Positions 3,417 to 50,477 of a stretch of DNA of 64,000 nucleotides are shown here, piece after piece. Within the stretch, counting starts at the first letter, position 1. Each line of letters opens with the position of its first letter. The stretch is from Dysgonomonas mossii DSM 22836 (GTDB lineage Bacteria > Bacteroidota > Bacteroidia > Bacteroidales > Dysgonomonadaceae): positions 248,001 through 312,000 of the forward strand of contig NZ_GL892004.1 in assembly GCF_000213575.1 (NCBI RefSeq). The letters are read 5' to 3'. Position numbers and translations under genes: made by a program. The notes under the pieces are model-generated. The model was not told the origin of the DNA and did not search any database. It saw nothing but the letters and a program-made list of their open reading frames with translations.

Positions 3417-3558
3417 TTCAAATAACTAATATTCATAGCTTCACTATCCACTCTCTTAACTCATAAATCAAATCCAAATCTTCAAAAAATCGGTACGAAA
3501 ATATCAACCTCCCCAAAAACCTATATAATAATCCAATACCACCCACACCATATCACAC

Positions 3559-7167: not shown

Positions 7168-7519
7168 AGTTTTCTTTTTTTATAGGTTAAACAATTAATT
7201 ACCATAAACTTAACATCAATTATCGTGCCATAATACATTTTGGCAGGGCTTTTTTATCTAATTGCCCCATACTTCATAACCCCTCTCCCCCTCCTACAAA
7301 AACATCCCTCCACATCCATAAAAAATACCCCTTGAAAAATAAAAGGGTACTCCAACACTATATTTTTGTTAATAGTTAAATAATCTGACGTCTTATCATT
7401 TTACGCTAAAAGTTGGGCTTCTAACAAATCATCTCTTAATAAATCTTTTTTTTAACAACCAAATGGCGAGGCTCATTGTTTAGATATGAGTTATAAACAT
7501 AATTAAAATCAGACTAGCT
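7168..7519. other. Gene-free stretch, extreme C excess
   Basis: No ORF or RNA gene is seen. The block 7261-7320 holds 28 C and only 1 G on the plus strand, the strongest strand bias in the window. The stretch must hold the upstream regions of both the small basic protein (minus) and the OmpA lipoprotein (plus), but no clear TAnnTTTG box stands out; TAAGTTTA is a weak candidate for the small gene. Confidence 0.6.
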
Positions 7520-18029: not shown

Positions 18030-19784
18030 TTATCTTATGCTTATGTCATAAGGCATGCGAGCTTGAACAAAATCTTGTTCCTTTATCTCTTTTATAGTCT
18101 TGAATAATTCATAATCCTTACCAAGGTATTCTTTCATTGCCTTTGTTGCAAATTCTTCTTTCTGGTTGGATAATAAACTTTCTAAAAAGTCAACTTTTTT
18201 AGGATAATCCTGCAAAGAATAATCATCAAGTTTGGCAAGTTTTGCTGCTTCTTGTATCGCAGTATCTATATTTCCAAGAGCATCTACCAATCCTATCTTT
18301 AGGGCTTGATTGCCTGTCCATACCCTACCCTGAGCAATATGATCCAGCGAATCTTTCGGAATATTACGCCCTTCTGAACAACGAGTTAAAAACAGGTCAT
18401 AGCCATGTTCAATATACTGCTGCAATATTACTTTTTCCTCAGGTCTCATCGGACGGGTAGCGTCACCAAAATCAGCAAATTTATTTGTTTTCACATTATC
18501 AAACGATAATCCTACCTTTTTAGTCAATCCCTCAAAATTTGGGAACATACCAAAAATACCAATTGAACCTGTCAATGTATTTGGTTGAGCAATAATTTTA
18601 GAAGCATTACATGCAATATAATAGCCTCCCGATGCCGCATAGTCTCCCATAGATACTACCACCGGTTTCTTTGCTTTCAGGTCGGTAATGGCTTTCCATA
18701 TTTGTTCCGAAGCATAAGCACTTCCTCCCGGCGAATTAACACGGAAAACTACAGCTTTTACTTTATCGTTATCTTTCAGTTTTTCAATTTCCTTCACATA
18801 TCTCTTATCAGTTATACCATCTTTACCGGATCCATTGTTGATAGATCCTTCGGCATAAAGTATAGCAATAACATCTTTAGAATTACTTTCTTTTACAAAT
18901 GATACGGAAGTCATATCCTTGATAGATGCCATTCTCACATCTTTTACTTTTTCTACTTTGAGCAAATCTTTCAGATATTCTTTTACTTCTGTCTCATACA
19001 TCAACGTATCTACAAGCCCATCGGTAACTGAAGCATTGGCTAGTTTGAATGTTTGCAAAGAATCTGTCAGTTGGTTTATTTTATCTACTGATATTTTTCT
19101 GGAGTCTGATATTTCGGATGTGATAGTAGACCATATATCGTTTATATATGCTGTAACCTGCTCTCTATTTGCATCACTCATTTTATCAAGCATAAAAGGC
19201 TCAACCGCAGATTTGAATGTACCTACTTTAAAAATCTGCATCTCTATACCTATTTTATCAAGTAGCCCTTTGTAGAAAGTAGGTGAAGATGAAAGTCCAT
19301 GCAAATCGAGATTACCCTGAGGGTTCATTATTACTTTGTCTGCTACTGACGATAAGTAATAGCATCCTTGTGAATAAACATCGGCGTAAGCAATAATAAA
19401 TTTTCCACTTTCTTTAAAGTCTGCTAACTGATCGCGTATTTCTTTCAACGAAGCATTAGAAGCAGCAAATGCACCGGCATTAATATAAATACCCTTTATA
19501 TTATCATTCTCCTTTGCTTTCTTTATAGAAGAAAGAATATCATCCAATCCTATTTCTAAATCCGTATTTTGACCTATCAAGTCTAAAAACGAATTTGGTT
19601 CTACTCTTTCAGACAGAGTACCTTCAAGTTTCAATGTCAATACAGTATTATCTTTCAAATTATATTTATCAGATGAGCCAAAAGACATAGCGGCTATTAT
19701 AAGAATAAATATAAAAATAAATATACCTATAACGATGGAACAGCCTACTATAGAGGCTAATAAACTCTTAAGAAAACCTTTCAT
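18030..19784 (-). CDS. sppA: Signal peptide peptidase SppA, 67 kDa type
   Basis: An inner-membrane serine protease that degrades cleaved signal peptides. 584 residues comprise an N-terminal anchor (VGCSIVIGIFIFIFILIIAAM) and two tandem ClpP-fold domains. The general-base Lys is in the first domain (KVGTFKSAVEPFM) and the nucleophilic Ser in the second (MGDYAASGGYYIAC), as in the E. coli tandem enzyme. GSIGIFGMFPNFEGL is a further signature. It heads the sppA-lpxK run and its start borders the gene-free origin candidate, so its promoter lies within that region. Confidence 0.94.
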   Translation of the reverse strand: MKGFLKSLLASIVGCSIVIGIFIFIFILIIAAMSFGSSDKYNLKDNTVLTLKLEGTLSERVEPNSFLDLIGQNTDLEIGLDDILSSIKKAKENDNIKGIYINAGAFAASNASLKEIRDQLADFKESGKFIIAYADVYSQGCYYLSSVADKVIMNPQGNLDLHGLSSSPTFYKGLLDKIGIEMQIFKVGTFKSAVEPFMLDKMSDANREQVTAYINDIWSTITSEISDSRKISVDKINQLTDSLQTFKLANASVTDGLVDTLMYETEVKEYLKDLLKVEKVKDVRMASIKDMTSVSFVKESNSKDVIAILYAEGSINNGSGKDGITDKRYVKEIEKLKDNDKVKAVVFRVNSPGGSAYASEQIWKAITDLKAKKPVVVSMGDYAASGGYYIACNASKIIAQPNTLTGSIGIFGMFPNFEGLTKKVGLSFDNVKTNKFADFGDATRPMRPEEKVILQQYIEHGYDLFLTRCSEGRNIPKDSLDHIAQGRVWTGNQALKIGLVDALGNIDTAIQEAAKLAKLDDYSLQDYPKKVDFLESLLSNQKEEFATKAMKEYLGKDYELFKTIKEIKEQDFVQARMPYDISIR

Positions 19785-20426
19785 CTTTTACATTATTATA
19801 TTAATGAATAACAAAATTATATATTTATCTGTGAATATGCTACTTAAATTAGTATTTCTTATCAATTGTTTCTTATTCTTATTTACATATTTCAATTATC
19901 AAAAAAGATTGTTGATAAACTGTTGATAACTGTTAATACATTTTTAAAACAAAATCAATTGTTTTATGAAACTAAACAACATATATGAAATAAGTCGCAG
20001 ATAACAATTAAAAATCACAGGCTTTTATCATTCTGCTATGAAAGGTTTATCAACAATTATTAATAGATTGAAAAATGAAAAATTATCAACAACTATAGTT
20101 ATTAACATTGTTTTAATAAAGTTCATAATACGCTTTATATAAATAATTTGTATAATTTTACTCTGTTTAATAACTCACATTTATACGTGAATGAACTTTT
20201 AATATCGATATTTACAAGTATTCTTCAAAAAAAGAATAAACACAATTAACAGTCTATTACAAACACAATGATTTTTTGTTAAGTTTAAATTAAAAATTAA
20301 TTATATATATAATGTTTAATAAACTCATCTTAGTTCTTAAATATATTCTTTTTATAATAGCATGTTGTTTTGTCACCACCTCTAATTGGTGCAATCGGGT
20401 AAATAATCAGATCATTTATAATTGAG
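19785..20426. other. Candidate chromosomal replication origin (oriC)
   Basis: A 642-nt gene-free, very AT-rich region between divergent genes. It holds four identical nonamers TTATCAACA, one mismatch from the DnaA box TTATCCACA: two inverted at 19910-19918 and 19921-19929, and two direct at 20047-20055 and 20083-20091. Near-matches such as TTATTAACA (20099-20107) follow. An extremely A/T stretch at about 20281-20330 could be the unwinding element. Intergenic composition changes from C/A-rich on the left flank to G/T-rich on the right flank, and gene orientation switches here. parS sites lie 16-25 kb away. No dnaA gene is in the window. A promoter region for sppA and the SGNH gene is also expected here. 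Confidence 0.65.
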
Positions 20427-21167
20427 ATGAAAAAGAAATTTATTTATAGCATTTTTGTTATATCTGTATTACTTAATTTGATATTGATACCATACGTAGG
20501 ATATCGGTTATACAAAGACAAATTGAACAACGATATTTTTAAGCTAAATGCTTATGCATGGGCTAATAGTGAACTGAAAATGACTGAAGTTAAAGAAAAC
20601 AGGGTCGTGTTTATAGGTAATTCTATCACCGAAAATTGGGTACATTTACGATACAAATTTTTTGTAGATAATAATTATGTATGCAGGGGAAAGGGTGGAC
20701 AAACAAGTTCATTGATGCTTTTACGTTTTAGGCAAGATGTTGTAGAATTACATCCTAAAGCTGTTGTTATAAGCGCAGGTATAAATGATATAGCCGAGAA
20801 AACAGGTGAATATGATCCTGTGTTTACGATGGATAATATAAAATCGATGGCCGAATTGGCTGATATGAACGACATAAAAGTAATATTGGTTTCTCTTCTG
20901 CCATGCAAAGGTCATGGATGGGAACCTATCAAAGATGTACCAGAGAAAATAGATGAACTAAATGAACGTATAAAAATTTATGCTGCAGAGAAAGATTATT
21001 ACTATTTAGATTTGAATACTCCTATGCGCGATAGTGAAAGCGGTATGATAAATAATTATTCGCTTGATGGATTGCATCCTAACGAAGAAGGGTATAAAAT
21101 AATAATGGAACCTTTGGTAAAAAAGGCTATTAATGAAGTTTTGAGTAAAAATGATAAAACCGAATGA
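20427..21167 (+). CDS. SGNH/GDSL hydrolase, membrane-anchored
   Basis: A 246-residue lipase/esterase-fold protein with an N-terminal membrane anchor (IYSIFVISVLLNLILIPYVG) and no obvious cleavage site, facing the periplasm. SGNH blocks: Ser in FIGNSITENW, Gly in GKGGQTSSL, Asn in SAGINDIA, and the Asp-x2-His pair in LDGLHPNEEGY. This is the PAF-acetylhydrolase-like subgroup; relatives deacetylate glycans or sialic acids. The substrate is unknown. It is followed by a barrel gene with one base between stop and start, and by a second SGNH gene, so the three probably form an operon. Confidence 0.88.
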   Translation: MKKKFIYSIFVISVLLNLILIPYVGYRLYKDKLNNDIFKLNAYAWANSELKMTEVKENRVVFIGNSITENWVHLRYKFFVDNNYVCRGKGGQTSSLMLLRFRQDVVELHPKAVVISAGINDIAEKTGEYDPVFTMDNIKSMAELADMNDIKVILVSLLPCKGHGWEPIKDVPEKIDELNERIKIYAAEKDYYYLDLNTPMRDSESGMINNYSLDGLHPNEEGYKIIMEPLVKKAINEVLSKNDKTE

Positions 21168-35808: not shown

Positions 35809-35883
35809 ATTTAATATTCATTAAATCAGTTTGATATGTATATTTCTGTTTGTCAACTTTTGAAGCGAAATATTGTTGTGCTT

Positions 35884-35899
35884 CGTTTCATGTGAAACA
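35884..35899. promoter_or_regulatory. parS-like site
   Basis: CGTTTCATGTGAAACA matches the ParB-binding consensus TGTTTCACGTGAAACA at 14 of 16 positions. One of the two mismatches is in the central CG step, so binding may be weaker. Confidence 0.5.
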
Positions 35900-36064
35900 A
35901 AAATGGAATTTGTTAATTTTTAGGTCTTTATTCTCGCTGTATATTCTATTTCTGTTAAAACTCCAAGATTGTAGAACCGAAAAATCGATGTGTTTATATT
36001 GCAGAGAGTGATAAAGCAGTAACTTTGTATATTATTAAAAATTAGAGCTTAGAAATATAATAAT

Positions 36065-37430: not shown

Positions 37431-37671
37431 TGCTTTGCCGGACTTTTATAGGCTGCTATTTTTACTTTTGATACTAGATTATGACATTTTGATCTAATTA
37501 TATGTTAAATTAAGTTTTTTTCAGATTTTTTGATTGATACAGTATCTATTTTTATTTTATAAACAGTGCATTTGTATACCTTTTAAACGAAGAAAATATT
37601 CTTTAGTAATACTTACACAAAGTGGCTTTTTTTTTAACGCGGTTTAACCTGTGTTAAGTCAAAAACCAGCA

Positions 37672-37727: not shown

Positions 37728-37994
37728 ATGAAAAAGATTATTCTTTCAGGTATCATGGCTATCGCATTAATCGCCTCTACCAGTGTAATGGCTCAAGATG
37801 TAAAAACAGCTAATCAAGCAAAAAAAGCCCCTAAAACAGAAGTTAAGGAAGCCAAACAAGCAGCTAAAACTGAAGTGAAAGAAGCTAAAGAAACTGCAAA
37901 AACAGAAAAGAAAGCAGCTAAGACAGAAGTGAAAGCAAAAAAGGAAGAAGCTAAAGGTAACGTGAAAGCAGCAAAGGCTGAACTGAAAAAGTAA
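37728..37994 (+). CDS. Secreted Lys/Ala/Glu-rich repeat protein
   Basis: 88 residues. A signal peptide (MKKIILSGIMAIALIASTSV, cleaved near MAQ) is followed by about 65 residues made almost only of K, A, E, T and V. An 11-residue unit KTEVKEAK-x2-A is seen twice and degenerates after that (KTEKKAA, KTEVKAKKEEA). It would form a highly charged helix, resembling LEA-like 11-mer repeats. Function unknown; an envelope stress or desiccation protectant is one guess. It has its own promoter and terminator. Confidence 0.8.
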   Translation: MKKIILSGIMAIALIASTSVMAQDVKTANQAKKAPKTEVKEAKQAAKTEVKEAKETAKTEKKAAKTEVKAKKEEAKGNVKAAKAELKK

Positions 37995-38103: not shown

Positions 38104-38967
38104 CTAATTAATACTTTCCAATAGGTTGTTCGCTAATCTGCTTGCTCCTATACGGAAATATTCCTTATTCAGATATTCATCGCCCAGTAGTTCTTTTACT
38201 ATGGTATAGTACTTTACAGCATCTTCTGTTGTAGAAATACCTCCCGAAACTTTAAATCCGGCTTTATTCCCTGTTTTCTGGTTATATTCTTTAATAGCAG
38301 TGCACATAACGTATGCTGCTTCGAGGGTAGCACCTTCATAGACTTTTCCTGTTGAGGTTTTTATAAAATCCGCACCTGAATATAATGCTAGGATAGAGGC
38401 TTTCATTATATTCTTAGCACTTTTTAGTGCCCCTGTTTCAAGTATCACCTTTAGCTTTGCGTCACGGCATGCGTTCTTTATTTCGTCTATTTCTTCACAA
38501 ACATCTTCGTAGTTTTCTTCCAGGAAGTATCCGAGATTAAGTACAATGTCTATTTCATCGGCTCCACTTGCTACAGCAAGTCCTGTTTCGGCTATTTTCA
38601 CTTCGGTAAATGTTTGAGATGAGGGGAATCCTCCTGCTACTGCGGCTATATTTACATTTGCCGTTAAAGCCTCTTTTACTGTTTCTACGAAGTTAGGGTA
38701 GACGCATATTGCTGCTACATTGTCTACATCGCTTGATCCTTCGAAGTCGTTTACTCTCTCTGTAAAATTCCAAATTTCTTCGCGTGTGTCCGTTGCATTC
38801 AAGGATGTGAGATCTATGCAGGAATATATCCTCTTATATACCTCTTTGGTATTATTCTGATCGAATTTCTTGCTGATTATCTCATTTACTTTCTGAGTGA
38901 TATCAGCATCTTTGATGTCTGTTTTATATTTTTTTAGAGTATCTCTGTATTTATCTACTTCTGCCAT
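38104..38967 (-). CDS. deoC: Deoxyribose-phosphate aldolase
   Basis: Splits 2-deoxyribose-5-phosphate into glyceraldehyde-3-phosphate and acetaldehyde in deoxynucleoside catabolism. 287 residues, class I TIM barrel. The Schiff-base Lys is in SGADFIKTSTGKV, and VCVYPNFV-like AAICVYPNFVETVKEAL, AGGFPSSQ, ADEIDIVLNLG and FKVSGGISTTEDA are family blocks. It is the third gene of a tight dtd-mazG-deoC operon with one-base gaps. Confidence 0.96.
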   Translation of the reverse strand: MAEVDKYRDTLKKYKTDIKDADITQKVNEIISKKFDQNNTKEVYKRIYSCIDLTSLNATDTREEIWNFTERVNDFEGSSDVDNVAAICVYPNFVETVKEALTANVNIAAVAGGFPSSQTFTEVKIAETGLAVASGADEIDIVLNLGYFLEENYEDVCEEIDEIKNACRDAKLKVILETGALKSAKNIMKASILALYSGADFIKTSTGKVYEGATLEAAYVMCTAIKEYNQKTGNKAGFKVSGGISTTEDAVKYYTIVKELLGDEYLNKEYFRIGASRLANNLLESIN

Positions 38968-38968
38968 T

Positions 38969-39295
38969 CTATTTCAATTTTTCGTTGTTTATATGCCTGT
39001 CTTTATCTCTGTTAGTCTTTTTTTCAATATTCTTTTTTAGGGCGTCTGTAAGATCTATGCCTGTTTGGTTTGCGAGACAGATAAGTACCCACAATACATC
39101 GGCCATCTCGTCTCCAAGATCTTTGTTCAGGTCAGACTTCTTGAAAGATTGATCACCGTAAGTACGTGCCATGATGCGGGCTAATTCGCCTACTTCTTCG
39201 GTGAGGATAGCCATGTTGGTTAGTTCGCTGAAATAGCGTACGCCCACGGTTTTTATCCATTGGTCTACCTCCTGTTGTGCTTCTTTTATTGTCAT
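38969..39295 (-). CDS. MazG-like nucleotide pyrophosphohydrolase
   Basis: 108 residues, a single MazG/dUTPase-like four-helix domain. The metal-binding acidic motifs are EEVGELARIMA and LGDEMADVLWVLICLAN. The size matches the small MazG-like proteins (iMazG type) that hydrolyse non-canonical NTPs. The gene lies between dtd and deoC, one base from each, so a house-cleaning role with dtd is plausible. Confidence 0.9.
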   Translation of the reverse strand: MTIKEAQQEVDQWIKTVGVRYFSELTNMAILTEEVGELARIMARTYGDQSFKKSDLNKDLGDEMADVLWVLICLANQTGIDLTDALKKNIEKKTNRDKDRHINNEKLK

Positions 39296-39296
39296 A

Positions 39297-39749
39297 TTAT
39301 TCTTTTACTTTCGAGTCGATCCATATAGTTACAGGACCGTCATTTATGAGTTCTACCTTCATATCTGCTCCAAATTCGCCTGTTGGTACCGGTTTACCTA
39401 GCTTGTTGCTCAAAACGGCACAAAATTCTTCGTACAAAGGTACAGCAATTTCGGGTTTTGCGGCATATATGTAGGACGGACGATTTCCTTTTTTAGTAGA
39501 AGCATGTAAGGTAAATTGCGATACTACAAGTATTTCGCCATTGATATCTTTTATTGATAAATTCATTACACCTTCCTTATCGTCAAATATCCGAAGATTT
39601 ACAGCCTTGTTGCAGAGCCACTCTATATCTTCCTTACTATCTGTATTTTCTATACCTACAAGGATAAGAAGCCCTTGATTTATTGCTGATTTTATACTGC
39701 CGTTGATTGTAACTGATGCTTTACTTACTCTTTGAATTAATATCCTCAT
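39297..39749 (-). CDS. dtd: D-aminoacyl-tRNA deacylase
   Basis: Removes D-amino acids (and glycine mischarged on tRNA-Ala) from tRNA. 150 residues, the typical length. Signature blocks are MRILIQRVSKASVTI, LVLVGIENTDS-like LLILVGIENTDSKED, the catalytic VVSQFTLHASTKKGNRPS and the cross-subunit Gly-cisPro motif INDGPVTIWID. First gene of the dtd-mazG-deoC operon. Confidence 0.97.
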   Translation of the reverse strand: MRILIQRVSKASVTINGSIKSAINQGLLILVGIENTDSKEDIEWLCNKAVNLRIFDDKEGVMNLSIKDINGEILVVSQFTLHASTKKGNRPSYIYAAKPEIAVPLYEEFCAVLSNKLGKPVPTGEFGADMKVELINDGPVTIWIDSKVKE

Positions 39750-39883
39750 GTTTGATAAAATAGAGTCGCATAATTAGATATGGACTTTAAAATTAGAGAT
39801 TAATTTGCAAATATACCTAAGTTGATTCATTTATTAATAACAGGGATTGAGGTTAATAATTATTTGTATAATCTGCTATAAGA

Positions 39884-40726
39884 CTATTGATATACTTTAG
39901 CTGCTTCCCATCCGATCATAGACGTTTTGCGGATATGTCCCCAATGATAGTCTCCCAGAGCCCCAGTGGACTGTATTATTCGGTGGCAAGGGATGAGATA
40001 TGCTACCGGGTTTTGCCCCACTGCATTTCCCACAGCCCGGCTTGCTTTAGGGTTGCTTATCAGATTAGCAATATTCTGGTATGATGATAATTGCCCCATC
40101 GGAATATTTAGCAAAGCTTGCCACACTTTAAGCTGAAAATCAGAACCTTTGATATGTAATTTAATTTTATCAAGGCTCTCCCAATCCAGATTAAAGATGC
40201 GTATTGCATTCTTTTGGATTTCATCTGTTGAATTCTGATAATTTGCTTTAGGAAAAATACTTGTCAGATTTGTAATTGCTTCTTCGTGGTCTTCTGCAAA
40301 TGCCATATGGCAGATCCCTTTTGGGGTTGAAGCCACAATTATTTCTCCAAATGGACTGAGTGCAAAGCTATAGTTTATAGTAAGATAGCTTCCTTCATTT
40401 TTGTATTCAGCGGGAGTCATTCCTTCTATATTTATAAACAGATCATGCAACCTGCTTGTGCCTGATAAGCCAACTTCGAATGCCGTATCGAATAGTGTTG
40501 CTTGTGTTTCTCTTAGGATCTGTTTTGCATGTTGTATACTTATATATTGTAGGAAGCGTTTAGGGCTCACTCCTGCCCATTCTTTGAATAATCGCTGAAA
40601 ATGGTAGGGACTAAGATGTATATGTTCTGAAATCTTGTCCAAACTAGGCTGATATTTGTAGTTTTCACTAATATATTCTATTGCCTTTTTGATGCGGTTG
40701 AAGTCTAACGATTCTTGATTAAGCAT
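39884..40726 (-). CDS. AraC-type regulator fused to O6-methylguanine-DNA methyltransferase (Ada-like)
   Basis: 280 residues from the chosen ATG. Residues about 8-100 are an AraC/XylS helix-turn-helix pair (LDKISEHIHLSPYHFQRLFK, ISIQHAKQILRETQATL). Residues about 115-275 are an MGMT domain with the alkyl-acceptor Cys in LIPCHRIIQ and the preceding VGNAVGQNPVAY. The Ada N-terminal zinc domain that senses methyl-phosphotriesters is absent. The longer frame (19 more residues) would include the promoter box, so MLNQESLDF is the start. The gene is divergent from an SDR gene across a symmetric promoter region, suggesting mutual regulation. Confidence 0.9.
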   Translation of the reverse strand: MLNQESLDFNRIKKAIEYISENYKYQPSLDKISEHIHLSPYHFQRLFKEWAGVSPKRFLQYISIQHAKQILRETQATLFDTAFEVGLSGTSRLHDLFINIEGMTPAEYKNEGSYLTINYSFALSPFGEIIVASTPKGICHMAFAEDHEEAITNLTSIFPKANYQNSTDEIQKNAIRIFNLDWESLDKIKLHIKGSDFQLKVWQALLNIPMGQLSSYQNIANLISNPKASRAVGNAVGQNPVAYLIPCHRIIQSTGALGDYHWGHIRKTSMIGWEAAKVYQ

Positions 40727-40747
40727 AGTTTTGGTTTTTATACTGTA

Positions 40748-40876
40748 CAAAGCTACATAGTAGTTTATACTTATAGAATCCATTTCTTGCTGAATTTGTT
40801 CGCTTTTAGTGTAATTACTTTTTCTCTATAATAGCAAGAAATGGATTTTAAGAGACTCTATGACAGAATATATTTG
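40748..40876. promoter_or_regulatory. Symmetric divergent promoter with inverted-repeat operator
   Basis: Two TAnnTTTG boxes face outward: TAGCTTTG on minus (40748-40755) and TATATTTG on plus (40869-40876), both followed by TAC(A/T)GT. The inverted repeats AATCCATTTCTTGCT (40777-40791) and AGCAAGAAATGGATT (40833-40847) are perfect over 15 bp. Each half-site ends exactly 21 nt from its own -7 box, placing it at the -33 position of each promoter. This looks like a paired binding site for one regulator. Confidence 0.7.
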
Positions 40877-40901
40877 TACTGTTTAATTAAATAAAACAAA
40901 T

Positions 40902-41657
40902 ATGAAAAAGCTAGAAGGAAAAGTAGCCCTTATAACAGGAGCTACAAGCGGTATAGGTAAGGCGACAGCTATCGATTTTATTGAGAACGGAGCCAAGGTA
41001 ATTTTTACAGGACGCTATCAAGAGACAGTACATAAAACAGTAGCTGAATTAGGAAATAAGGCTGTAGGTTTTGTTTCAGATAGCGGGAATATGTCTGATT
41101 TATTGGCTATTAATGAAAATATTAACTCCATTTCGCCTCGGATAGATATCCTGTATGTAAATGCAGGTTTTGGGAAATATGCGCCTATTGAGGCGGTCAC
41201 AGAAGAACATTTCGATGGCATGTTTAATGTGTTGGTAAAAGGAACTTTGTTTACGGTACAACAAGTATTACCATTGATGGGAGAGGGGAGCTCCATAATA
41301 TTGAATTCTTCGAACGTGACAAAGATGGGAATGCAGAACTCTTCTGTTTATTCTGCTGCCAAATCAGCTATTTTATCCTTTGTGAAGACGTTTGCGGCAG
41401 AATTATCTTCGAGAAATATCCGTGTAAATGCAGTAAGTCCGGGGCCGGTAAGTACAAATTATTTCGATCGATCTAATCTTTCTAAAAATCAGATAGATAG
41501 TATTGTAGAATATGTGTTGCCTCAAGTTGCACTCAAGAGGTTTGCACAGCCTTCTGAAATTGCTAAAGTGATAACATTCCTTGCATCTGATGACGCCTCT
41601 TTTATACAAGGAGCAGAAATATCTGTAGATGGTGGTTTTCCGGAAGTTAGGGTGTGA
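40902..41657 (+). CDS. Short-chain dehydrogenase/reductase (SDR)
   Basis: 251 residues, classical SDR. Cofactor motif ITGATSGIGKATAIDF (TGxxxGIG), NAG in YVNAGFGKY, the catalytic Ser in ILNSSNVTKM, and YSAAKSAILSF (YxxxK). TGRYQET after the second strand suggests NADP(H) preference (inference). The substrate is not deducible. It shares a symmetric promoter region with the AraC-MGMT gene, and a strong terminator follows. Confidence 0.93.
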   Translation: MKKLEGKVALITGATSGIGKATAIDFIENGAKVIFTGRYQETVHKTVAELGNKAVGFVSDSGNMSDLLAINENINSISPRIDILYVNAGFGKYAPIEAVTEEHFDGMFNVLVKGTLFTVQQVLPLMGEGSSIILNSSNVTKMGMQNSSVYSAAKSAILSFVKTFAAELSSRNIRVNAVSPGPVSTNYFDRSNLSKNQIDSIVEYVLPQVALKRFAQPSEIAKVITFLASDDASFIQGAEISVDGGFPEVRV

Positions 41658-41672
41658 TCCATACAATGTGAT

Positions 41673-41701
41673 AAGAGGTGTCTTAAAAGTAGACACCTCT
41701 T
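41673..41701 (+). terminator. SDR gene terminator
   Basis: AAGAGGTGTCT / AGACACCTCTT, perfect 11-bp stem with a 7-nt loop, 15 nt after the stop. Confidence 0.8.
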
Positions 41702-41741
41702 AACCTTTTGTTCCAAAAAATTAAATGTTATTTCATTCTAA

Positions 41742-42341
41742 CTATTCGTTATGTATTTCTTCTTCAATCTTTTCCATTTCCTTGTGAAGAGATTTTAATC
41801 TCATTCCAAGGTATATTCTGAAGAAACCATAAGAGATGAACGAAATACTAATGAGCGCTACTATAAATCCTGATGTTAGAACAGGACTCATTATGAAAAT
41901 AAATGACAGAATTACACCTAAAACAGCTAATATAAGTAGCCATCCCCAGCCTTTAGCTCCATTTCTCCGTAGTTCTACAGCTCCTCCTATTCCCCAGATA
42001 GACTGAAACATTACCCAGAATCCAACAAAATATGAGAGTACGATTGCGATTACTGCAGGTGACATTGATATAAGAATGATACCGAATAATAAGTCTATAA
42101 TACCACTTACTAAAGTCCACCCCCAGCTCTTGAGTGTATTTCTATTTGACACAGCAAATATTATTTCGAAAACACCACTTACAAAGAAAGTTACGGAAAA
42201 TACAATTGATAATGCTGTAATTGTAGTCCACGGAGATGTTAAACACCAAATTCCCAGCATTATAGCTAGTAGTCCGATTAGCAATGAAACCCACCAGTAT
42301 TTGACGGCTTGTTTTACAGAGTAAAATAAATCATTTCTCAT
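41742..42341 (-). CDS. HdeD-family (DUF308) membrane protein
   Basis: 199 residues with six hydrophobic helices in three similar pairs, for example WVSLLIGLLAIMLGIWCL and GWTLVSGIIDLLFGIILIS, and a charged C-terminal tail (KSLHKEMEKIEEEIHNE). This is the DUF308/HdeD pattern, a family linked to acid resistance in E. coli but of unknown mechanism. Single gene, convergent with the SDR gene. Confidence 0.85.
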   Translation of the reverse strand: MRNDLFYSVKQAVKYWWVSLLIGLLAIMLGIWCLTSPWTTITALSIVFSVTFFVSGVFEIIFAVSNRNTLKSWGWTLVSGIIDLLFGIILISMSPAVIAIVLSYFVGFWVMFQSIWGIGGAVELRRNGAKGWGWLLILAVLGVILSFIFIMSPVLTSGFIVALISISFISYGFFRIYLGMRLKSLHKEMEKIEEEIHNE

Positions 42342-42515
42342 GTGTACGTTATTTTTTAATTAGTTTATGTATTATACTATTATAACGTCTACCAACTTAT
42401 TTAGTTTCGAGAAAGTTAAATGTTATGAATGGGCTGTACGTTGTTTTAGTCCAAATTTTTCAGGTATAATTTATTTATTCTTTCTTCCAAGTGCAAGGTT
42501 TTATTGTACAGATAT

Positions 42516-44330
42516 TTAATTTTGTGACTCTTTTTCTTCGGTAAAATATTTATCAATTAATGTAGCTTTGTGTTTACCGACTACTTTTTCTATTTCTTCG
42601 CTAGAAGCTGATTTTATTCTCTTTACGCTTTTGAATTCTTTCAGTAGAAGACGTTTAGTCTCTTCACCGATACCTTTGATATTATCTAATTCAGATTTTA
42701 CCTGTCCCTTACTTCTTTGGTTGCGGTGAAAAGTGATTCCAAATCTATGAGCTTCATCCCTAAGGTGTTGTATAATCTTCAAAGATTCACTGTTTTTGTC
42801 CAGATAGAGTGGGATAGAGTCTTCTGGATAGTAGATTTCTTCCAGTCTTTTTGCAATGCCAACAATGGCAACTTTGCCATAAATACCGAGCTCTTTTAAC
42901 GATTCACAAGCTGCACTTAGCTGACCTTTACCTCCGTCGATAACAATAAGCTGGGGTAGGGGACTTCCCTCTTCTATAAGTCTGTGGTATCTGCGATATA
43001 CGACCTCACGCATTGTTGAAAAATCGTCAGGTCCAATTACTGTTTTAACATTGAAGTGGCGATAGTCTTTTTTTGAAGGTTTTCCCATTTTGAAGACAAC
43101 ACATGCCGATACGGGGTTGGTTCCCTGTATGTTGGAGTTGTCGAAACATTCAATGTGTGATGGCAAGTCTTTGAGGTTCAGATCTTTTTGCATTTCTTTC
43201 AGGATGCGAGTACCTCTTTGTTCAGGATTTAAGCTTTCTGCCCTTTTTAATTTGTCTACTTTGTATTGTCTTACATTCTGGGTTGAAAGAAGCAATAGTT
43301 TTTTCTTATCGCCTCGTTGAGGAATGTTAATTTCTATACCATCTAATTTCAGGTCGGGGAGAAATGGTACAACAATTTCTTTCGCTGTAGAGCCAAATCT
43401 TTTTCTTACTTCAATAATACCTAAAGCAAGTAATTCCTCTTTTTCTTCTTCTATCCGTTTTCTATATTCGAATGTATATGCCTGTATAACAGCACCATTA
43501 TACACATTCAAATAGTTGATATATCCTGCATCTGCATCTTCGTCATAGCTGAATACATCAATGTTATATTTGATTGAACTTACTACGGTTGATTTATTTT
43601 TGAAATTCTCAATTAATATGAATTTTTCTTTTAATTTATTCGCTTCTTCAAATTCTTGCTTCTCAGCCAGTGCCTGCATTTCTGAATAGATTGACTCGCT
43701 TACAAGATTGGTATTCCCTTTTAAGATTTCCTGGATAGCATTTACATTTTTAATATATTCTTCAGAATCCTGTAAACCAACGCAAGGCCCCTTGCATCTT
43801 TTTATATGATACTCTAAACAGACTTTATATTTTCCTTCTGCAATTTTCTCCGGCGTAAGATTTAATGAGCATGTGCGGATAGGATACAATTTGTGGATCA
43901 ACTCCAGGAGAGTCTTTACACTCAGTACATTAGAGTATGGTCCGAAATATTTAGAGCCATCTTTTAGTATTTTTCTTGTTATTTCTATACGTTGGAAATA
44001 TTCATTTCTAATTACAATAGACGGATATGATTTATCATCTTTCAGCATTACGTTGTATCGTGGCTGAAATTCTTTGATCAGGCTATTCTCCAGTAGGAGA
44101 GTGTCTTCTTCTGATTCAACAATGATATATTTAATATCTTTTATTTTGCTGACTAGTATCCTTGTTTTCGGACTGTCCTCATGGTTTTTTGTGAAATATG
44201 AAGAAACTCGTTTTTTTAGATTTTTTGCTTTCCCTACATATATAATTACTCCCTTGGCGTCATAATATTGATAACAACCGGGCTTCTGTGGAATATTTCT
44301 AATGATATTTTTCAAAGAATCATTAATCAT
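42516..44330 (-). CDS. uvrC: Excinuclease ABC subunit C
   Basis: Makes both incisions in nucleotide excision repair. 604 residues, full length. Domains in order: GIY-YIG nuclease (PGCYQYYDAKGVIIYVGKAK, about residues 15-35), a cysteine cluster (CSLNLTPEKI ... CLEYHIKRCKGPC), the UVR UvrB-binding helix pair (AEKQEFEEANKLKEKF), the RNase-H-like second nuclease (ECFDNSNIQGTNPVSA, VIDGGKGQLSAA) and C-terminal helix-hairpin-helix (IKGIGEETKRLLLKEF). uvrA and uvrB are not in the window. Confidence 0.97.
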   Translation of the reverse strand: MINDSLKNIIRNIPQKPGCYQYYDAKGVIIYVGKAKNLKKRVSSYFTKNHEDSPKTRILVSKIKDIKYIIVESEEDTLLLENSLIKEFQPRYNVMLKDDKSYPSIVIRNEYFQRIEITRKILKDGSKYFGPYSNVLSVKTLLELIHKLYPIRTCSLNLTPEKIAEGKYKVCLEYHIKRCKGPCVGLQDSEEYIKNVNAIQEILKGNTNLVSESIYSEMQALAEKQEFEEANKLKEKFILIENFKNKSTVVSSIKYNIDVFSYDEDADAGYINYLNVYNGAVIQAYTFEYRKRIEEEKEELLALGIIEVRKRFGSTAKEIVVPFLPDLKLDGIEINIPQRGDKKKLLLLSTQNVRQYKVDKLKRAESLNPEQRGTRILKEMQKDLNLKDLPSHIECFDNSNIQGTNPVSACVVFKMGKPSKKDYRHFNVKTVIGPDDFSTMREVVYRRYHRLIEEGSPLPQLIVIDGGKGQLSAACESLKELGIYGKVAIVGIAKRLEEIYYPEDSIPLYLDKNSESLKIIQHLRDEAHRFGITFHRNQRSKGQVKSELDNIKGIGEETKRLLLKEFKSVKRIKSASSEEIEKVVGKHKATLIDKYFTEEKESQN

Positions 44331-44465
44331 CGTGTTCTTTTCTTTACTAATTGTATTTTATGTGAAATTATTAATTTGTTTTCTATACTACAAATGAATG
44401 TCTATTTATAATCAAAAAAGGGAAGAATTCTTTTTTCTCCCCTTCTCCAAAATTATTTATATAAT

Positions 44466-45017
44466 TTAAATATCGTAATGAATCAAAGAGTTAATTCCGA
44501 TTTCTTTAGGAAATAGCTTTCTGCCCTCTAGTGCATCCAGCTCAATGATAAAGTTGACATATATCTTTTTTACTCCCATGTCCTTCACTAACTTGTATGC
44601 AGCATACATGGTACCTCCTGTGGCTAATAGGTCATCATGGATCAATACCACGTCATCTTTTGACAGAGAGTCTTTATGTATTTGAATTTTATCTACTCCA
44701 TATTCTTTTTCATATTCTTGTTCGAATACTTCTGCCGGCAATTTTCCGGGTTTGCGAATTGGAACAAAACCAGCTCCAAGTTCTAAGGCCATAATTGGAC
44801 CCATGATAAAACCCCTTGATTCTATGCCAACAACTTTTGTTATTCCTTTATCTTTGTATTCATCTAAAAGAACTTCTGTGAGATTTGATAGAGACTCTTT
44901 TGTTTTAAATAACGGAGTGACGTCCTTGAATTGAATTCCCGGTATTGGGAAATCTGGTATGTTTCTTACCGTTTCTCGGAGTATTAAAAGCTTTTCTTCC
45001 TTTTCTTTTTTGTCCAT
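44466..45017 (-). CDS. apt: Adenine phosphoribosyltransferase
   Basis: Salvages adenine to AMP with PRPP. 183 residues. IRNIPDFPIPGIQFKDVTPLF-like start (VRNIPDFPIPGIQFKDVTPL), GIESRGFIMGPIMALELG and the PRPP-binding loop VLIHDDLLATGGTMYAA are present. It is downstream of mnmG on the same strand; the two are separated by a pair of parS sites, so co-transcription is possible. Confidence 0.97.
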   Translation of the reverse strand: MDKKEKEEKLLILRETVRNIPDFPIPGIQFKDVTPLFKTKESLSNLTEVLLDEYKDKGITKVVGIESRGFIMGPIMALELGAGFVPIRKPGKLPAEVFEQEYEKEYGVDKIQIHKDSLSKDDVVLIHDDLLATGGTMYAAYKLVKDMGVKKIYVNFIIELDALEGRKLFPKEIGINSLIHYDI

Positions 45018-45039
45018 TTTTTTTGTTTAGTATTAGCGG

Positions 45040-45055
45040 TGTTTCACGTGGAACA
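45040..45055. promoter_or_regulatory. parS site 1 (ParB-binding)
   Basis: TGTTTCACGTGGAACA is the exact reverse complement of TGTTCCACGTGAAACA, the canonical chromosomal parS of Bacillus subtilis. It lies in the 78-nt gap between mnmG and apt, 17 nt from the second site. Confidence 0.85.
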
Positions 45056-45072
45056 ATTTTTATTTTAGCATA

Positions 45073-45088
45073 CGTTCCACGTGAAACA
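45073..45088. promoter_or_regulatory. parS site 2 (ParB-binding)
   Basis: CGTTCCACGTGAAACA differs from canonical parS only at the first base. It is in inverted orientation to site 1, and the pair also forms a 14-bp inverted repeat that could fold into a hairpin in the mnmG transcript. Confidence 0.8.
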
Positions 45089-45095
45089 TTTTCAT

Positions 45096-46970
45096 TTATC
45101 TGCCTAGCAGCACAAGGAGAATGGAGATGTCGTTGGGGGAAACACCGGGAATTCTGCTTGCTTGAGCAATTGTTTCTGGATTTATTTTTGATAATTTTTG
45201 TCGTGCTTCTGTTGATAGGGATGAGATATTTTCGTAATCAAACTTGTCTTTAATTCGAATATTTTCCAATCTTGTTATCTTGTCAGCGATCGTTTGTTCA
45301 CGTTTTATATAGCCGTCATATTTGATTATGATCTCTGCAGCTTCTATTATTTCTTCTCTTCTGTTCGGAATTTTATCAAGTTCTACCTTGAATGCAGGGA
45401 TATATTCTGCGATGCTTTTTATTGTAATTTGTGGGCGAGTAATTACATCTTTTAGCTTCATGCCTTGCTTGAGCGGATTAGTTCCTAGTTTGGATAATCC
45501 TTCATTGATGTATTCCGGTTTGAGGGAATAATTAGCCACGAAGTTTATTATCTTTTGAACCTCTTCTTTTTTCTCGTTCAATAGGGCAATTCTTTCTTGT
45601 TTTGCCAACCCTATGTTGTATCCCTTTTCTGTTAGGCGTACATCTGCATCATCTTGGCGAAGAAGAATTCTATATTCTGCCCTTGATGTAAACATCCTAT
45701 ACGGTTCGTCTACGCCTTTTGTTACAAGGTCATCTATCAGTACACCTATATATGCTTCATCTCTTTTTAAGACAAATTCGTTGCCTCCGTGGGTATTGAT
45801 ATGCGCATTTATTCCTGCTATTAATCCTTGTCCTCCCGCTTCTTCGTAACCTGTAGTCCCATTGATTTGACCGGCAAAAAACAGGTTTTTAACGAGCTTC
45901 GTTTCCAACGTATGTTTTAATTGAGTAGGGTCGAAGAAGTCGTACTCTATTGCATATCCGGGTCTATATATATGTATATTTCTGAATGCCGGTATTTTCT
46001 GTAAAGCCTCAATTTGAGTATGGAGTGGGAGGGAAGAAGAGAACCCATTTAAGTAGTATTCTTGTGTGCTTTCTCCTTCCGGTTCGAGAAATAGTTGGTG
46101 AGATGTCTTCTCTTCGAAAGTGACTATCTTTGTTTCTATACTTGGGCAATAACGGGGGCCAATACTTTTTATCTGTCCATTGTATAGTGGAGAATCATCC
46201 AATCCATCGCGTAATGTGGCATGGGTATCATCGTTTGTATACGTTATCCAGCAACTAAGTTGTTTCAAGGTGCGTGGTTCATAGTCAAGATATGAAAACT
46301 TGTGAAAGTCATCGTCACCTTTTTGTTCTTCCATCAGGCTAAAGTCAACGCTTCTTCCGTCTACACGAGCAGGTGTTCCTGTTTTCATCCTGTCGGTGGT
46401 GAACCCAAAATCCCTCAATTGTTCGGTGATTCCGAATGAAGCGGGTTCAGAAACACGTCCTCCTCCGAGCTGTGTTTTGCCTATATGCATCAATCCATTC
46501 AAGAAAGTTCCATTGGTTAGTACTACGGCTTTGGCTGAAAATTCAACACCCATTGCTGTTTTTACTCCTGTTACTGTTTTGTCTTGAACAATGAGTGAAG
46601 TGACAGTGTCTTGCCAAATAAAAAGATTATCGGTGTTTTCAATAATCTCTCTCCACTTCATAATAAATCGGGCTCTGTCACTCTGAGCTCTCGGGCTCCA
46701 CATTGCCGGCCCTTTCGATTTATTAAGCATGCGAAACTGTATTGCTGTCTTGTCTGTAACGATGCCCATTTGCCCTCCAAGCGCATCGATCTCACGAACG
46801 ATTTGCCCTTTTGCAATTCCCCCTACTGCGGGGTTACAGCTCATTTGGGCAATCTTATTCATGTCCATTGTTATGAGCAAGGTCTTCGAGCCCATATTGG
46901 CTGCGGCAGCGGCTGCTTCGCAGCCTGCATGACCTGCCCCAACGACAATTATATCATATTTGAAATTCAT
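45096..46970 (-). CDS. mnmG: tRNA uridine-5-carboxymethylaminomethyl modification enzyme, FAD subunit
   Basis: With MnmE, modifies U34 of certain tRNAs. 624 residues, typical length. FAD-binding VVGAGHAGCEAAAAAANMG (residues about 9-28), CNPAVGGIAKGQIVREIDAL, FAGQINGTTGYEEAAGQG-like FAGQINGTTGYEEAGGQ, FTSRAEYRILLRQDDADVRL, and the C-terminal helical domain ending ASRIPGVSPNDISILLVLL. In many bacteria mnmG (gidA) lies near the origin with parAB; here parS sites follow its stop codon, while parA, parB and mnmE are not in the window. Confidence 0.98.
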   Translation of the reverse strand: MNFKYDIIVVGAGHAGCEAAAAAANMGSKTLLITMDMNKIAQMSCNPAVGGIAKGQIVREIDALGGQMGIVTDKTAIQFRMLNKSKGPAMWSPRAQSDRARFIMKWREIIENTDNLFIWQDTVTSLIVQDKTVTGVKTAMGVEFSAKAVVLTNGTFLNGLMHIGKTQLGGGRVSEPASFGITEQLRDFGFTTDRMKTGTPARVDGRSVDFSLMEEQKGDDDFHKFSYLDYEPRTLKQLSCWITYTNDDTHATLRDGLDDSPLYNGQIKSIGPRYCPSIETKIVTFEEKTSHQLFLEPEGESTQEYYLNGFSSSLPLHTQIEALQKIPAFRNIHIYRPGYAIEYDFFDPTQLKHTLETKLVKNLFFAGQINGTTGYEEAGGQGLIAGINAHINTHGGNEFVLKRDEAYIGVLIDDLVTKGVDEPYRMFTSRAEYRILLRQDDADVRLTEKGYNIGLAKQERIALLNEKKEEVQKIINFVANYSLKPEYINEGLSKLGTNPLKQGMKLKDVITRPQITIKSIAEYIPAFKVELDKIPNRREEIIEAAEIIIKYDGYIKREQTIADKITRLENIRIKDKFDYENISSLSTEARQKLSKINPETIAQASRIPGVSPNDISILLVLLGR

Positions 46971-47073
46971 CTTATTTAAAAGGGGATAATAATTATTTGC
47001 ACTGCAAAGTTAGCACTTTTTGTTTTCTTTTTTATGCGCTAATTTACAGTACAATATAAATTAACAATATTCT

Positions 47074-47814
47074 TTATGCTTTGTTGGCATTTTCTATTGC
47101 TAATTTTATTTTTTCGGCGTCCGATAGCAATATCGAATACTCCTCGTTGAAGTTGTCGAAGATGGGAGATTGGTATTGCATTTCTCCTGTATACCGACTT
47201 CTGAAAGAACCGTGAAACTCTTTCAAGCCTGTAGCCTTTGCAAGATCTGCAATGTTATTTTCTGTAATTCCTCCACCCGGCATAATGATGATGCGGTTGT
47301 TTGCTTGTTCTATTAATTGCCTTAAAATATCTTTTCCTTCAGGGGCTGTTTTCATTCCGCCGGAGGTAAGTATTCTATCACATCCCAGTTCGATAATATC
47401 TTCGAGAGATTTATTCAAATCAGAGCATCTGTCGAATGCTCGATGGAAAGTAGTACTCATACCATATTGGTGAGCAATTTCAACCAGTTCTTTATTTCTT
47501 AATTTGTCTATTGTTCCATCAGTATTTAAAATGCCAAAAACTACTCCGTCACATTTTGCCTGTCCGCAATGATGGATGTCTCTTTTCATCATTTCAAATT
47601 CCAGGTCATTATATAAGAAATCACCTCCGCGCGGACGTATGATTACATTCACCTGTATATTCAAATTTTTTCGTGTGAATTCTATTTGCGAAAGGGCAGG
47701 GGTTGTTCCCCCTTCTTCGAGATTATCACATAATTCTACCCGAACAGCTCCTCCCTTTTGAGCTTCGATTGCTGATTGTGCTGAATTTGCACAAACTTCG
47801 GCTACTATATTCAT
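47074..47814 (-). CDS. cutC: CutC-family protein
   Basis: 246 residues forming a TIM barrel. Blocks visible: EVCANSAQSAIEAQKGGAVR, RVELCDNLEEGGTTPALSQI, VIIRPRGGDFLYNDLEFEMM, FHRAFDRCSDL, ILTSGGMKTAPEG and IMPGGGITENNI. CutC was named for copper homeostasis in E. coli, but direct copper handling is disputed and the reaction is unknown. Single gene. Confidence 0.92.
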   Translation of the reverse strand: MNIVAEVCANSAQSAIEAQKGGAVRVELCDNLEEGGTTPALSQIEFTRKNLNIQVNVIIRPRGGDFLYNDLEFEMMKRDIHHCGQAKCDGVVFGILNTDGTIDKLRNKELVEIAHQYGMSTTFHRAFDRCSDLNKSLEDIIELGCDRILTSGGMKTAPEGKDILRQLIEQANNRIIIMPGGGITENNIADLAKATGLKEFHGSFRSRYTGEMQYQSPIFDNFNEEYSILLSDAEKIKLAIENANKA

Positions 47815-50394: not shown

Positions 50395-50477
50395 GAGCAA
50401 AATGCTGAAATTAAATTAGAAAAATAAATATCTTTGTAAAGATATATAAATAAAATAATTAAGAAGCTAAACAGATT

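What the first reader, a model, noticed from the sequence alone, without database searches (positions are those of the whole stretch)
19785..20426. Probable chromosomal replication origin with four identical DnaA-box-like nonamers
Seen: a 642-nt gene-free AT-rich region holds TTATCAACA four times within 182 nt, two in each orientation, each one mismatch from TTATCCACA. Genes on the left run mostly minus and on the right mostly plus. Intergenic composition flips: 3421-3540 has C 32, G 4, and 7261-7320 has C 28, G 1, while 35821-35940 has G 21, C 13, and 37441-37560 has G 14, C 10 with T far above A. Known: leading strands are G (and often T) rich. Inference: replication diverges from about 20 kb. 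The absence of dnaA nearby makes this easy to miss in annotation.
Basis: partly seen in the sequence, partly recalled or inferred. Interest (0 to 1): 0.78.

Follow-up and report, generated by a model that had tools for sequence, protein, structure and literature searches.

The report
Replication origin of a Dysgonomonas chromosome
This stretch is very probably where the chromosome of a Dysgonomonas bacterium starts to be copied; that is ordinary, but its strand-opening module and the matching initiator protein both differ from the textbook version, which could mean a different reading code.

Summary
Observation confirmed, interpretation supported. Four TTATCAACA sites lie in 182 nt; 0 of 20,000 shuffles of the gap reach three. 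The G-C minimum of 464 kb of the contig falls at window 20,382; dnaA is on another contig without a skew switch. The object is larger than four boxes: a 381-nt conserved element (19,910-20,290) with five boxes at nearly fixed spacing in most of 19 same-genus loci. A model of it finds one copy in 13 of 15 genomes outside its training set, including Petrimonas and Bacteroides. In single-contig G029, with sppA 326 kb away, that copy sits on the skew minimum. So it is oriC; oriC far from dnaA is already reported for Bacteroidetes (PMC4755523). Possibly new: its right end resembles the basal unwinding system (box pair, spacer, triplets, DUE), but the invariant base is an A on the box strand every 3 nt (triplets 2-4: 31 of 31 loci), where known DnaA-trios conserve the opposite strand's A; and the B. 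subtilis DnaA residues that read the trio (N187, R202, E228) are absent in 16 of 16 Bacteroidales DnaAs read.

The parts
19910..20290 (+). conserved oriC element, one copy per genome where found
   Evidence: alignment A2 of 19 same-genus loci, own included; model R1 finds one copy in 16 of 18 distinct genomes, 13 of 15 outside the training set
19910..19918 (-). DnaA box 1, TTATCAACA
   Evidence: TT[AT]TNNACA class in 15 of 19 loci
19921..19929 (-). DnaA box 2, TTATCAACA
   Evidence: 17 of 19 loci
20047..20055 (+). DnaA box 3, TTATCAACA
   Evidence: 15 of 19 loci
20083..20091 (+). DnaA box 4, TTATCAACA
   Evidence: 16 of 19 loci
20099..20107 (+).
   Evidence: 19 of 19 loci in class, 6 of 19 exactly TTATCAACA
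20111..20122 (+). conserved AT-rich block TTTTAATAAAGT right of box 5; role unknown
   Evidence: A2 invariant columns
20234..20242 (+). weak DnaA-box-like site GAATAAACA (upstream member of a tandem pair); TTATCAACA in L201 and L264
20243..20251 (+). weak DnaA-box-like site CAATTAACA (DUE-proximal member of the pair); TATCAACA in several relatives
20252..20254 (+). 3-nt spacer GTC (GGC or GCC in most relatives)
20255..20272 (+). triplet repeat TAT TAC AAA CAC AAT GAT, A in the centre on the box strand (trio-like)
   Evidence: centre A in 27, 31, 31, 31, 30, 19 of 31 loci for triplets 1-6
20271..20321 (.). probable DNA unwinding element
   Evidence: least stable 50-bp stretch of the 64-kb window, by a hair (0.934 against 0.936 at 50411); at 100 bp the stretch 20260-20360 ranks third
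18030..19784 (-). sppA, left neighbour (in the window's genus)
   Evidence: TIGR00705; beside the element in G003 but not in G026, G029 or G033-G036
20427..21167 (+). GDSL-type hydrolase gene, right neighbour
   Evidence: PF13472
23619..24722 (+). ychF GTPase gene, which stays to the right of the element in the family
   Evidence: PF06071; right of the element in 7 of 7 fetched family loci, also Petrimonas and G028

Best explanation
It is the DnaA-dependent chromosomal replication origin (oriC) of a Dysgonomonas species. Shown by sequence: a 381-nt conserved element with two leftward and three rightward DnaA boxes, then at the right end a weak tandem box pair, a 3-nt spacer, six A-centred triplets, a T run and a very unstable AT stretch; strand composition flips at it. 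Inferred: DnaA fills the boxes, the pair at 20234-20251 guides a DnaA filament onto one strand of the triplets, the duplex melts at 20255-20321, helicases load and forks leave both ways. Inferred variant: the triplets are read by a DnaA pocket that differs from that of B. subtilis, because both the invariant base of the triplets and the pocket residues are changed.
For: Box cluster beyond chance (0 of 20,000 shuffles reach three). Paired exact boxes found only here in the own genome; model R2 scores E 5.7e-18 here against 0.087 for the next place (R2's training includes this locus). Box spacing 11/126/36/16 kept to within 1-2 nt in most loci while letters drift. G-C minimum at 20,382 over 464 kb. 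Single-contig G003: 8 of 10 samples left negative, 9 of 10 right positive, switch between 2.34 and 2.60 Mb, element at 2.518 Mb. Single-contig G029: element 1,652,478-1,652,853, G-C minimum 1,650,954, keto minimum 1,652,879 over 498 kb, sppA 326 kb away; 20 of 24 samples left negative, 12 of 13 right up to 3.0 Mb positive. Seven family loci of 12-20 kb: local G-C minimum within 1.6 kb of the element in 6 of 7. Petrimonas: local G-C minimum 494 bp away. 8 of 8 loci go from negative to positive G-C skew over 1.5-kb flanks. Unstable stretch beside it. Own DnaA has domains I, III and IV.
Against: No experiment. Own genome is a draft: 464 kb contiguous plus 100 kb of samples of the 829-kb contig and 120 kb of C2 were examined; the rest was not. 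In G003 the fine 180-kb G-C curve has its minimum at the block edge (2,426,000), not at the element; its keto minimum (2,513,236) is 5 kb away. Keto minimum of the own contig at window 13,383, 6.5 kb off; Petrimonas local keto minimum at the block edge, 8.2 kb off; B. xylanisolvens local G-C minimum 6.3 kb off; in the seven family loci the keto minimum is within 1 kb in 4 and 5-10 kb off in 3, and the G-C minimum of L229 is 4.9 kb off. G029's skew turns back between 3.0 and 3.3 Mb, not opposite the element at 3.8 Mb. 2 of 18 distinct genomes gave no R1 match: G019 (also without a good sppA or ychF match, so probably an assembly gap) and G028 (found by R2). For the unwinding module: in this window both tandem sites have 3 mismatches to TTATCAACA and 4 to TTATCCACA, and the canonical trio strand shows no run of three NAN there before the T run (read).
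Confidence: 0.95

Rival explanations
1. It is a DnaA-titration or DnaA-regulated site (datA-like, or a promoter region regulated by DnaA between divergent genes), and the true origin lies elsewhere.
For: A cluster of DnaA boxes between divergent genes fits such a site; no functional data; the own genome was not scanned whole for skew.
Against: G-C minimum at the element in the own contig and in G029; the element follows the skew minimum when its left-hand genes change; best place in the genome by far; a very unstable stretch adjoins it.
Confidence: 0.04
2. The conserved stretch is a promoter or leader of sppA or of the GDSL gene rather than an origin.
For: It lies between divergent genes; a separate block nearer sppA (about 19,808-19,848) is also conserved in much of the genus.
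Against: In six family genomes the same element has neither gene beside it; only ychF stays, 1 to 3.3 kb away.
Confidence: 0.01
3. The A-centred triplets are ordinary canonical DnaA-trios in another frame: with a 4-nt spacer the box strand reads ATY, so the opposite strand carries 3'-TAR-5' with a central A in the usual register, and DnaA reads them in the usual way.
For: Third-position T (A on the other strand) in 30, 23, 14, 11, 30 of 31 loci for triplets 1-5 and 7, 7, 5, 6, 6 of 7 further R2 loci (six other families and G028); Petrimonas (L264) and G034 (L201) fit it fully.
Against: In many loci, Dysgonomonas and Bacteroides among them, the central base of triplets 3 and 4 is G or even T on the trio strand, while the neighbouring base is the same in 31 of 31 for triplets 2-4; changing A to G or T at that base impairs B. 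subtilis origins (PMC10721633 section 10). DnaA residues N187, R202 and E228 are absent in 16 of 16.
Confidence: 0.45

Closest known systems
Predicted oriC of Prevotella intermedia OMA14 chromosome I, and Bacteroidetes oriCs of DoriC
   Same: Multiple DnaA boxes at a GC-skew transition, far from dnaA (PMC4755523, passage read)
   Different: That passage gives no module anatomy; its sequence was not compared here
Bacillus subtilis oriC incC / basal unwinding system (boxes 6 and 7, GC spacer, DnaA-trios, AT-rich DUE)
   Same: Order and spacing: tandem co-oriented boxes, short GC-rich spacer, about six triplets, T run, AT-rich DUE (the T run of B. subtilis is recalled)
   Different: Box strand conserves A every 3 nt instead of T (B. 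subtilis complement of the trios CTACTATTACTTCTACTA, PMC10201434 passage); trio-reading residues of DnaA differ; origin not beside dnaA
Helicobacter pylori oriC2 DUE module
   Same: Box, GC-rich spacer, about five triplets, AT-rich stretch (PMC8235120, passages)
   Different: Its trio is written CTA with a strictly conserved T; reversal of the trio polarity blocked unwinding there

Membership tests
DnaA-dependent bacterial oriC | cluster of DnaA boxes beyond chance in an intergenic AT-rich stretch | tested here: met
DnaA-dependent bacterial oriC | lies at the GC-skew minimum | tested here: met
   G-C: own contig (464 kb), G029, Petrimonas local; G003 only coarsely; keto minima agree in G029 but lie 5-8 kb off in own contig, G003 and Petrimonas
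DnaA-dependent bacterial oriC | single copy, conserved arrangement among relatives | tested here: met
DnaA-dependent bacterial oriC | adjacent low-stability DUE | tested here: met
   near tie with another 50-bp stretch of the window
DnaA-dependent bacterial oriC | initiates replication in the cell; bound by DnaA | not testable with these tools
   needs marker frequency and footprinting
DnaA-dependent bacterial oriC | beside dnaA (common, not defining) | tested here: not met
   dnaA at C2:335797-337164, another contig
Basal unwinding system (BUS) | DnaA box within 16 bp of the triplets, 2 mismatches at most (PMC8287927 section 13) | tested here: inconclusive
   met in relatives with TATCAACA (L201, L202, L203, L204, L264); in this window the nearest two sites have 3 mismatches to TTATCAACA
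Basal unwinding system (BUS) | at least three 3'-NAN-5' triplets on the strand opposite the box strand | tested here: inconclusive
   met in Petrimonas and G034, not in this window before the T run; NAN is met on the box strand instead, 6 of 6 triplets here
Basal unwinding system (BUS) | DnaA with trio-reading residues like N187, I190, R202, E228 of B. subtilis (PMC10721633 section 9 says their properties are generally maintained) | tested here: not met
   none of N187, I190, R202, E228 in 16 of 16 Bacteroidales DnaAs read; replacements V/I/Q/T, A/T/V, I/M/L, T/N/I; N196 kept in the 15 aligned

The most novel reading that the evidence does not exclude
Bacteroidales origins use a re-wired unwinding code: DnaA, having lost the N187/R202/E228 pocket, captures a different base of each triplet (an invariant T on the usual trio strand, or the A of the box strand), so DnaA and origin changed together in this order.
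Probability: 0.35. Interest if true: 0.75.

Novelty: new variant of a known kind. Interest (0 to 1): 0.5.

Why it matters
As an origin it is an expected object in an expected kind of place. What may matter is that it gives an alignable oriC family for Bacteroidales, usable to place origins in draft genomes and for growth-rate estimates from read depth, and that it offers a natural case in which both halves of a proposed broadly conserved system (trio and trio-reading residues) appear to have changed together. The claim that the unwinding system is broadly conserved then becomes directly testable outside the lineages assayed so far.

Tried and rejected
Linkage of the origin to sppA as a general rule: rejected; it holds in the window's genus, not in the other genera looked at. 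Linkage to ychF as a rule for the order: holds in the family; in the 19 loci of other families fetched no box cluster of three or more with an AT-rich stretch lies next to ychF, although in 4 of them (L240, L251, L255, L256) the local G-C minimum is within 1.3 kb of ychF, so this is not settled; 2 of the 21 other-family genomes with a ychF hit (G037, G046) were not fetched, because of the limit of 20 regions. An origin beside dnaA: no skew switch there, no R1 match in 100 kb around it. A left-hand DUE next to boxes 1 and 2: the stretch just left of box 1 is not conserved. Repeated word TTTAATAA as a second motif class: 3 copies against 0.7 expected, 31 of 1000 shuffles; weak. Literature: searches for sppA with oriC and Bacteroides, DnaA-trio with oriC and Bacteroidetes, Dysgonomonas with oriC, ychF with oriC and Bacteroides and DnaA-trio with Bacteroid gave nothing on this point; supplements could not be read, so the phylum logos of PMC8287927 and Figure S8 of PMC8235120 were not seen.

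Full report
What was checked. The four TTATCAACA sites are at the stated places and nowhere else in the window. Their number in 64 kb is only mildly unusual (3 of 100 shuffles reach 4), but their clustering is: in 20,000 dinucleotide shuffles of the 642-nt gap no shuffle reached three copies. The gap has no ORF of 80 aa or more and is 79.6% AT.

Where it is. The window is C1:248001-312000 of a 3.95-Mb draft of 28 contigs. Members of the same genus carry contigs that match, by length and place, records named Dysgonomonas (for example G011 and Dysgonomonas sp. BGC7, G012 and D. hofstadii). dnaA is on contig C2 and encodes a protein with domains I, III and IV. The left side carries thiL, pnp, lpxK and sppA on the minus strand; the right side GDSL-type genes, ychF and polA on the plus strand.

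Skew. Over C1:1-472000, without 8 kb (464 kb examined), the cumulative G-C minimum is at window 20,382. Five samples further right were positive in 4 of 5, and six 20-kb blocks around dnaA were all positive, so no switch there. The keto (G+T) minimum of the same 464 kb is at window 13,383, 6.5 kb off. In single-contig relative G003, 8 of 10 samples left of the locus are negative and 9 of 10 right of it positive; the fine G-C curve there is not clean (80 kb left of the locus is positive, minimum at the block edge), and its keto minimum, 2,513,236, is 5 kb from the element.

The element. Aligning the upstream region of sppA in 19 same-genus loci, own included, shows that the conserved thing is 381 nt long (19,910-20,290). 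Five boxes keep their places (spacing 11, 126, 36, 16, give or take 1-2 nt) in most loci while single letters drift: class TT[AT]TNNACA in 15, 17, 15, 16 and 19 of 19. The least stable 50 bp of the window, 20,271-20,321, adjoins its right end, though by a hair (0.934 against 0.936 at 50,411), and at 100 bp this place ranks third.

Independent test by relocation. A sequence-only model of the element (R1) was run on whole genomes: 10 of 12 and 8 of 9 had one match at E 0.001 or better, none had two. One match, in G010, is partial at a contig end. The misses are G019, which also lacks good sppA and ychF matches and so probably has an assembly gap, and G028, where the second model found the module 1.1 kb upstream of ychF. 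In single-contig G029 the element lies at 1,652,478-1,652,853 with sppA 326 kb away; G-C minimum 1,650,954 and keto minimum 1,652,879 over 498 contiguous kb; of the samples of that chromosome 20 of 24 left of it are negative and 12 of 13 right of it, up to 3.0 Mb, positive, after which 3 of 3 are negative again. In Petrimonas sp. IBARAKI (complete record) the local G-C minimum is 494 bp from the element, but the keto minimum is at the block edge; in Bacteroides xylanisolvens XB1A (complete record) the local keto minimum is 525 bp away, but the G-C minimum 6.3 kb off (18 kb each). Of seven fetched family loci, sppA is beside the element in one (G003); ychF lies 1.0 to 2.3 kb to the right in 7 of 7; the local G-C minimum is within 1.6 kb in 6 of 7, the keto minimum within 1 kb in 4 of 7. 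The origin therefore goes with the skew minimum, not with sppA.

The right-end module. In the alignment of 19 loci the A columns 353, 356, 359, 362 and 365 are invariant, exactly three apart; random placement of the same number of invariant A columns gives such a run in 329 of 100,000 trials (the pattern was seen first and tested afterwards). Across 31 loci (those 19 and 12 found by R1, including Petrimonas and Bacteroides) the module reads: weak or exact box, box ending AACA, 3-nt spacer (mostly GGC or GCC), then triplets with A in the centre in 27, 31, 31, 31, 30 and 19 of 31 for triplets 1-6, then mostly a T run. Related loci are not independent events. A second model (R2) found the module in 7 of 23 further genomes (six other families and G028) and again in Bacteroides; centre A there in 7, 7, 6, 6, 7 of 7, triplets read by eye. 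R1 and R2 contain the triplets, so loci found with them lean towards the pattern. 8 of 8 loci switch from negative to positive G-C skew over 1.5-kb flanks; divergent genes alone could contribute to that.

Comparison with the basal unwinding system. The published system is a DnaA box or box pair, a spacer and at least three 3'-NAN-5' triplets (consensus 3'-GAT-5') (PMC8287927: section 13 and the first of two parts of section 14 read). The complement of the B. subtilis trios is CTACTATTACTTCTACTA (PMC10201434, passage), the H. pylori trio is written CTA with a strictly conserved T (PMC8235120, passages). That the B. subtilis boxes point the same way is recalled and fits the passages, but was not read from a sequence. 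In the present element the box points the same way, but the invariant base on the box strand is A. If one counts a 4-nt spacer, the canonical central position falls on the third letter of each triplet: T there in 30, 23, 14, 11 and 30 of 31 for triplets 1-5. So the canonical reading fits Petrimonas and G034 well, and this window poorly.

The initiator. In B. subtilis the captured bases are held by N187, R202 and E228, with I190 and I193 flanking (PMC10721633 sections 9 and 10, read). Aligned to that protein (8btg), the own DnaA has V, I, T and A at 187, 202, 228 and 190. Of 17 DnaA loci looked at, 16 could be read: N187 in 0 of 16, R202 in 0, E228 in 0, I190 in 0; N196 is kept in the 15 aligned (one more read by eye). 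T. maritima keeps N187, R202 and E228. The box-reading helix of domain IV is similar throughout. This is a joint change of reader and read sequence; that the two are causally linked is inference.

Verdict. The locus is the chromosomal oriC with high confidence, an expected kind of object; oriC far from dnaA is already reported as common in Bacteroidetes (PMC4755523, passage). The unwinding module is best filed as a variant of the basal unwinding system, not as a plain member, because the residues that read the trio in B. subtilis were tested and not met, and the trio criterion is not met in this window. Whether the variant is known is uncertain: the one held paper that joins DnaA-trio with a word beginning Bacteroid is on legume nodules (listing only), but supplements of the two surveys were out of reach. 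For the papers PMC5771137, PMC10225481, PMC7561715, PMC6669920 and PMC5043019 I saw passages only.

Noticed in passing
G019 (same genus, listed 99% complete): No good match to sppA, ychF or the origin element; probably one missing stretch around the origin in that assembly.
   Followed up: partly
   Followed up: no
G029:C1:2988854-2990653 and G036:C14:7204-8994: A second full-length SppA paralogue in some relatives.
   Followed up: no
window 37816-37918: Tandem repeat of a 33-nt unit (3.1 copies) inside the 88-aa ORF 37728-37994; probably a Lys/Ala-rich protein repeat.
   Followed up: no
window 3421-3540 and 7261-7320: Intergenic stretches strikingly poor in G (4 G of 120, 1 G of 60), beyond the mean intergenic bias of that side.
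   Followed up: no
window 38104-47814: A mostly minus-strand gene block right of the origin, with AT skew down to -0.25, against the inferred replication direction.
   Followed up: no
window about 19808-19848: A second conserved block between sppA and box 1 (ACAAAATT..ATATATTTATCTG..) in many same-genus loci; perhaps the sppA promoter.
   Followed up: no
L009:3357-3708(-): Model R1 also matches the element weakly on the opposite strand (E 0.0014): the origin has some inverted symmetry.
   Followed up: no
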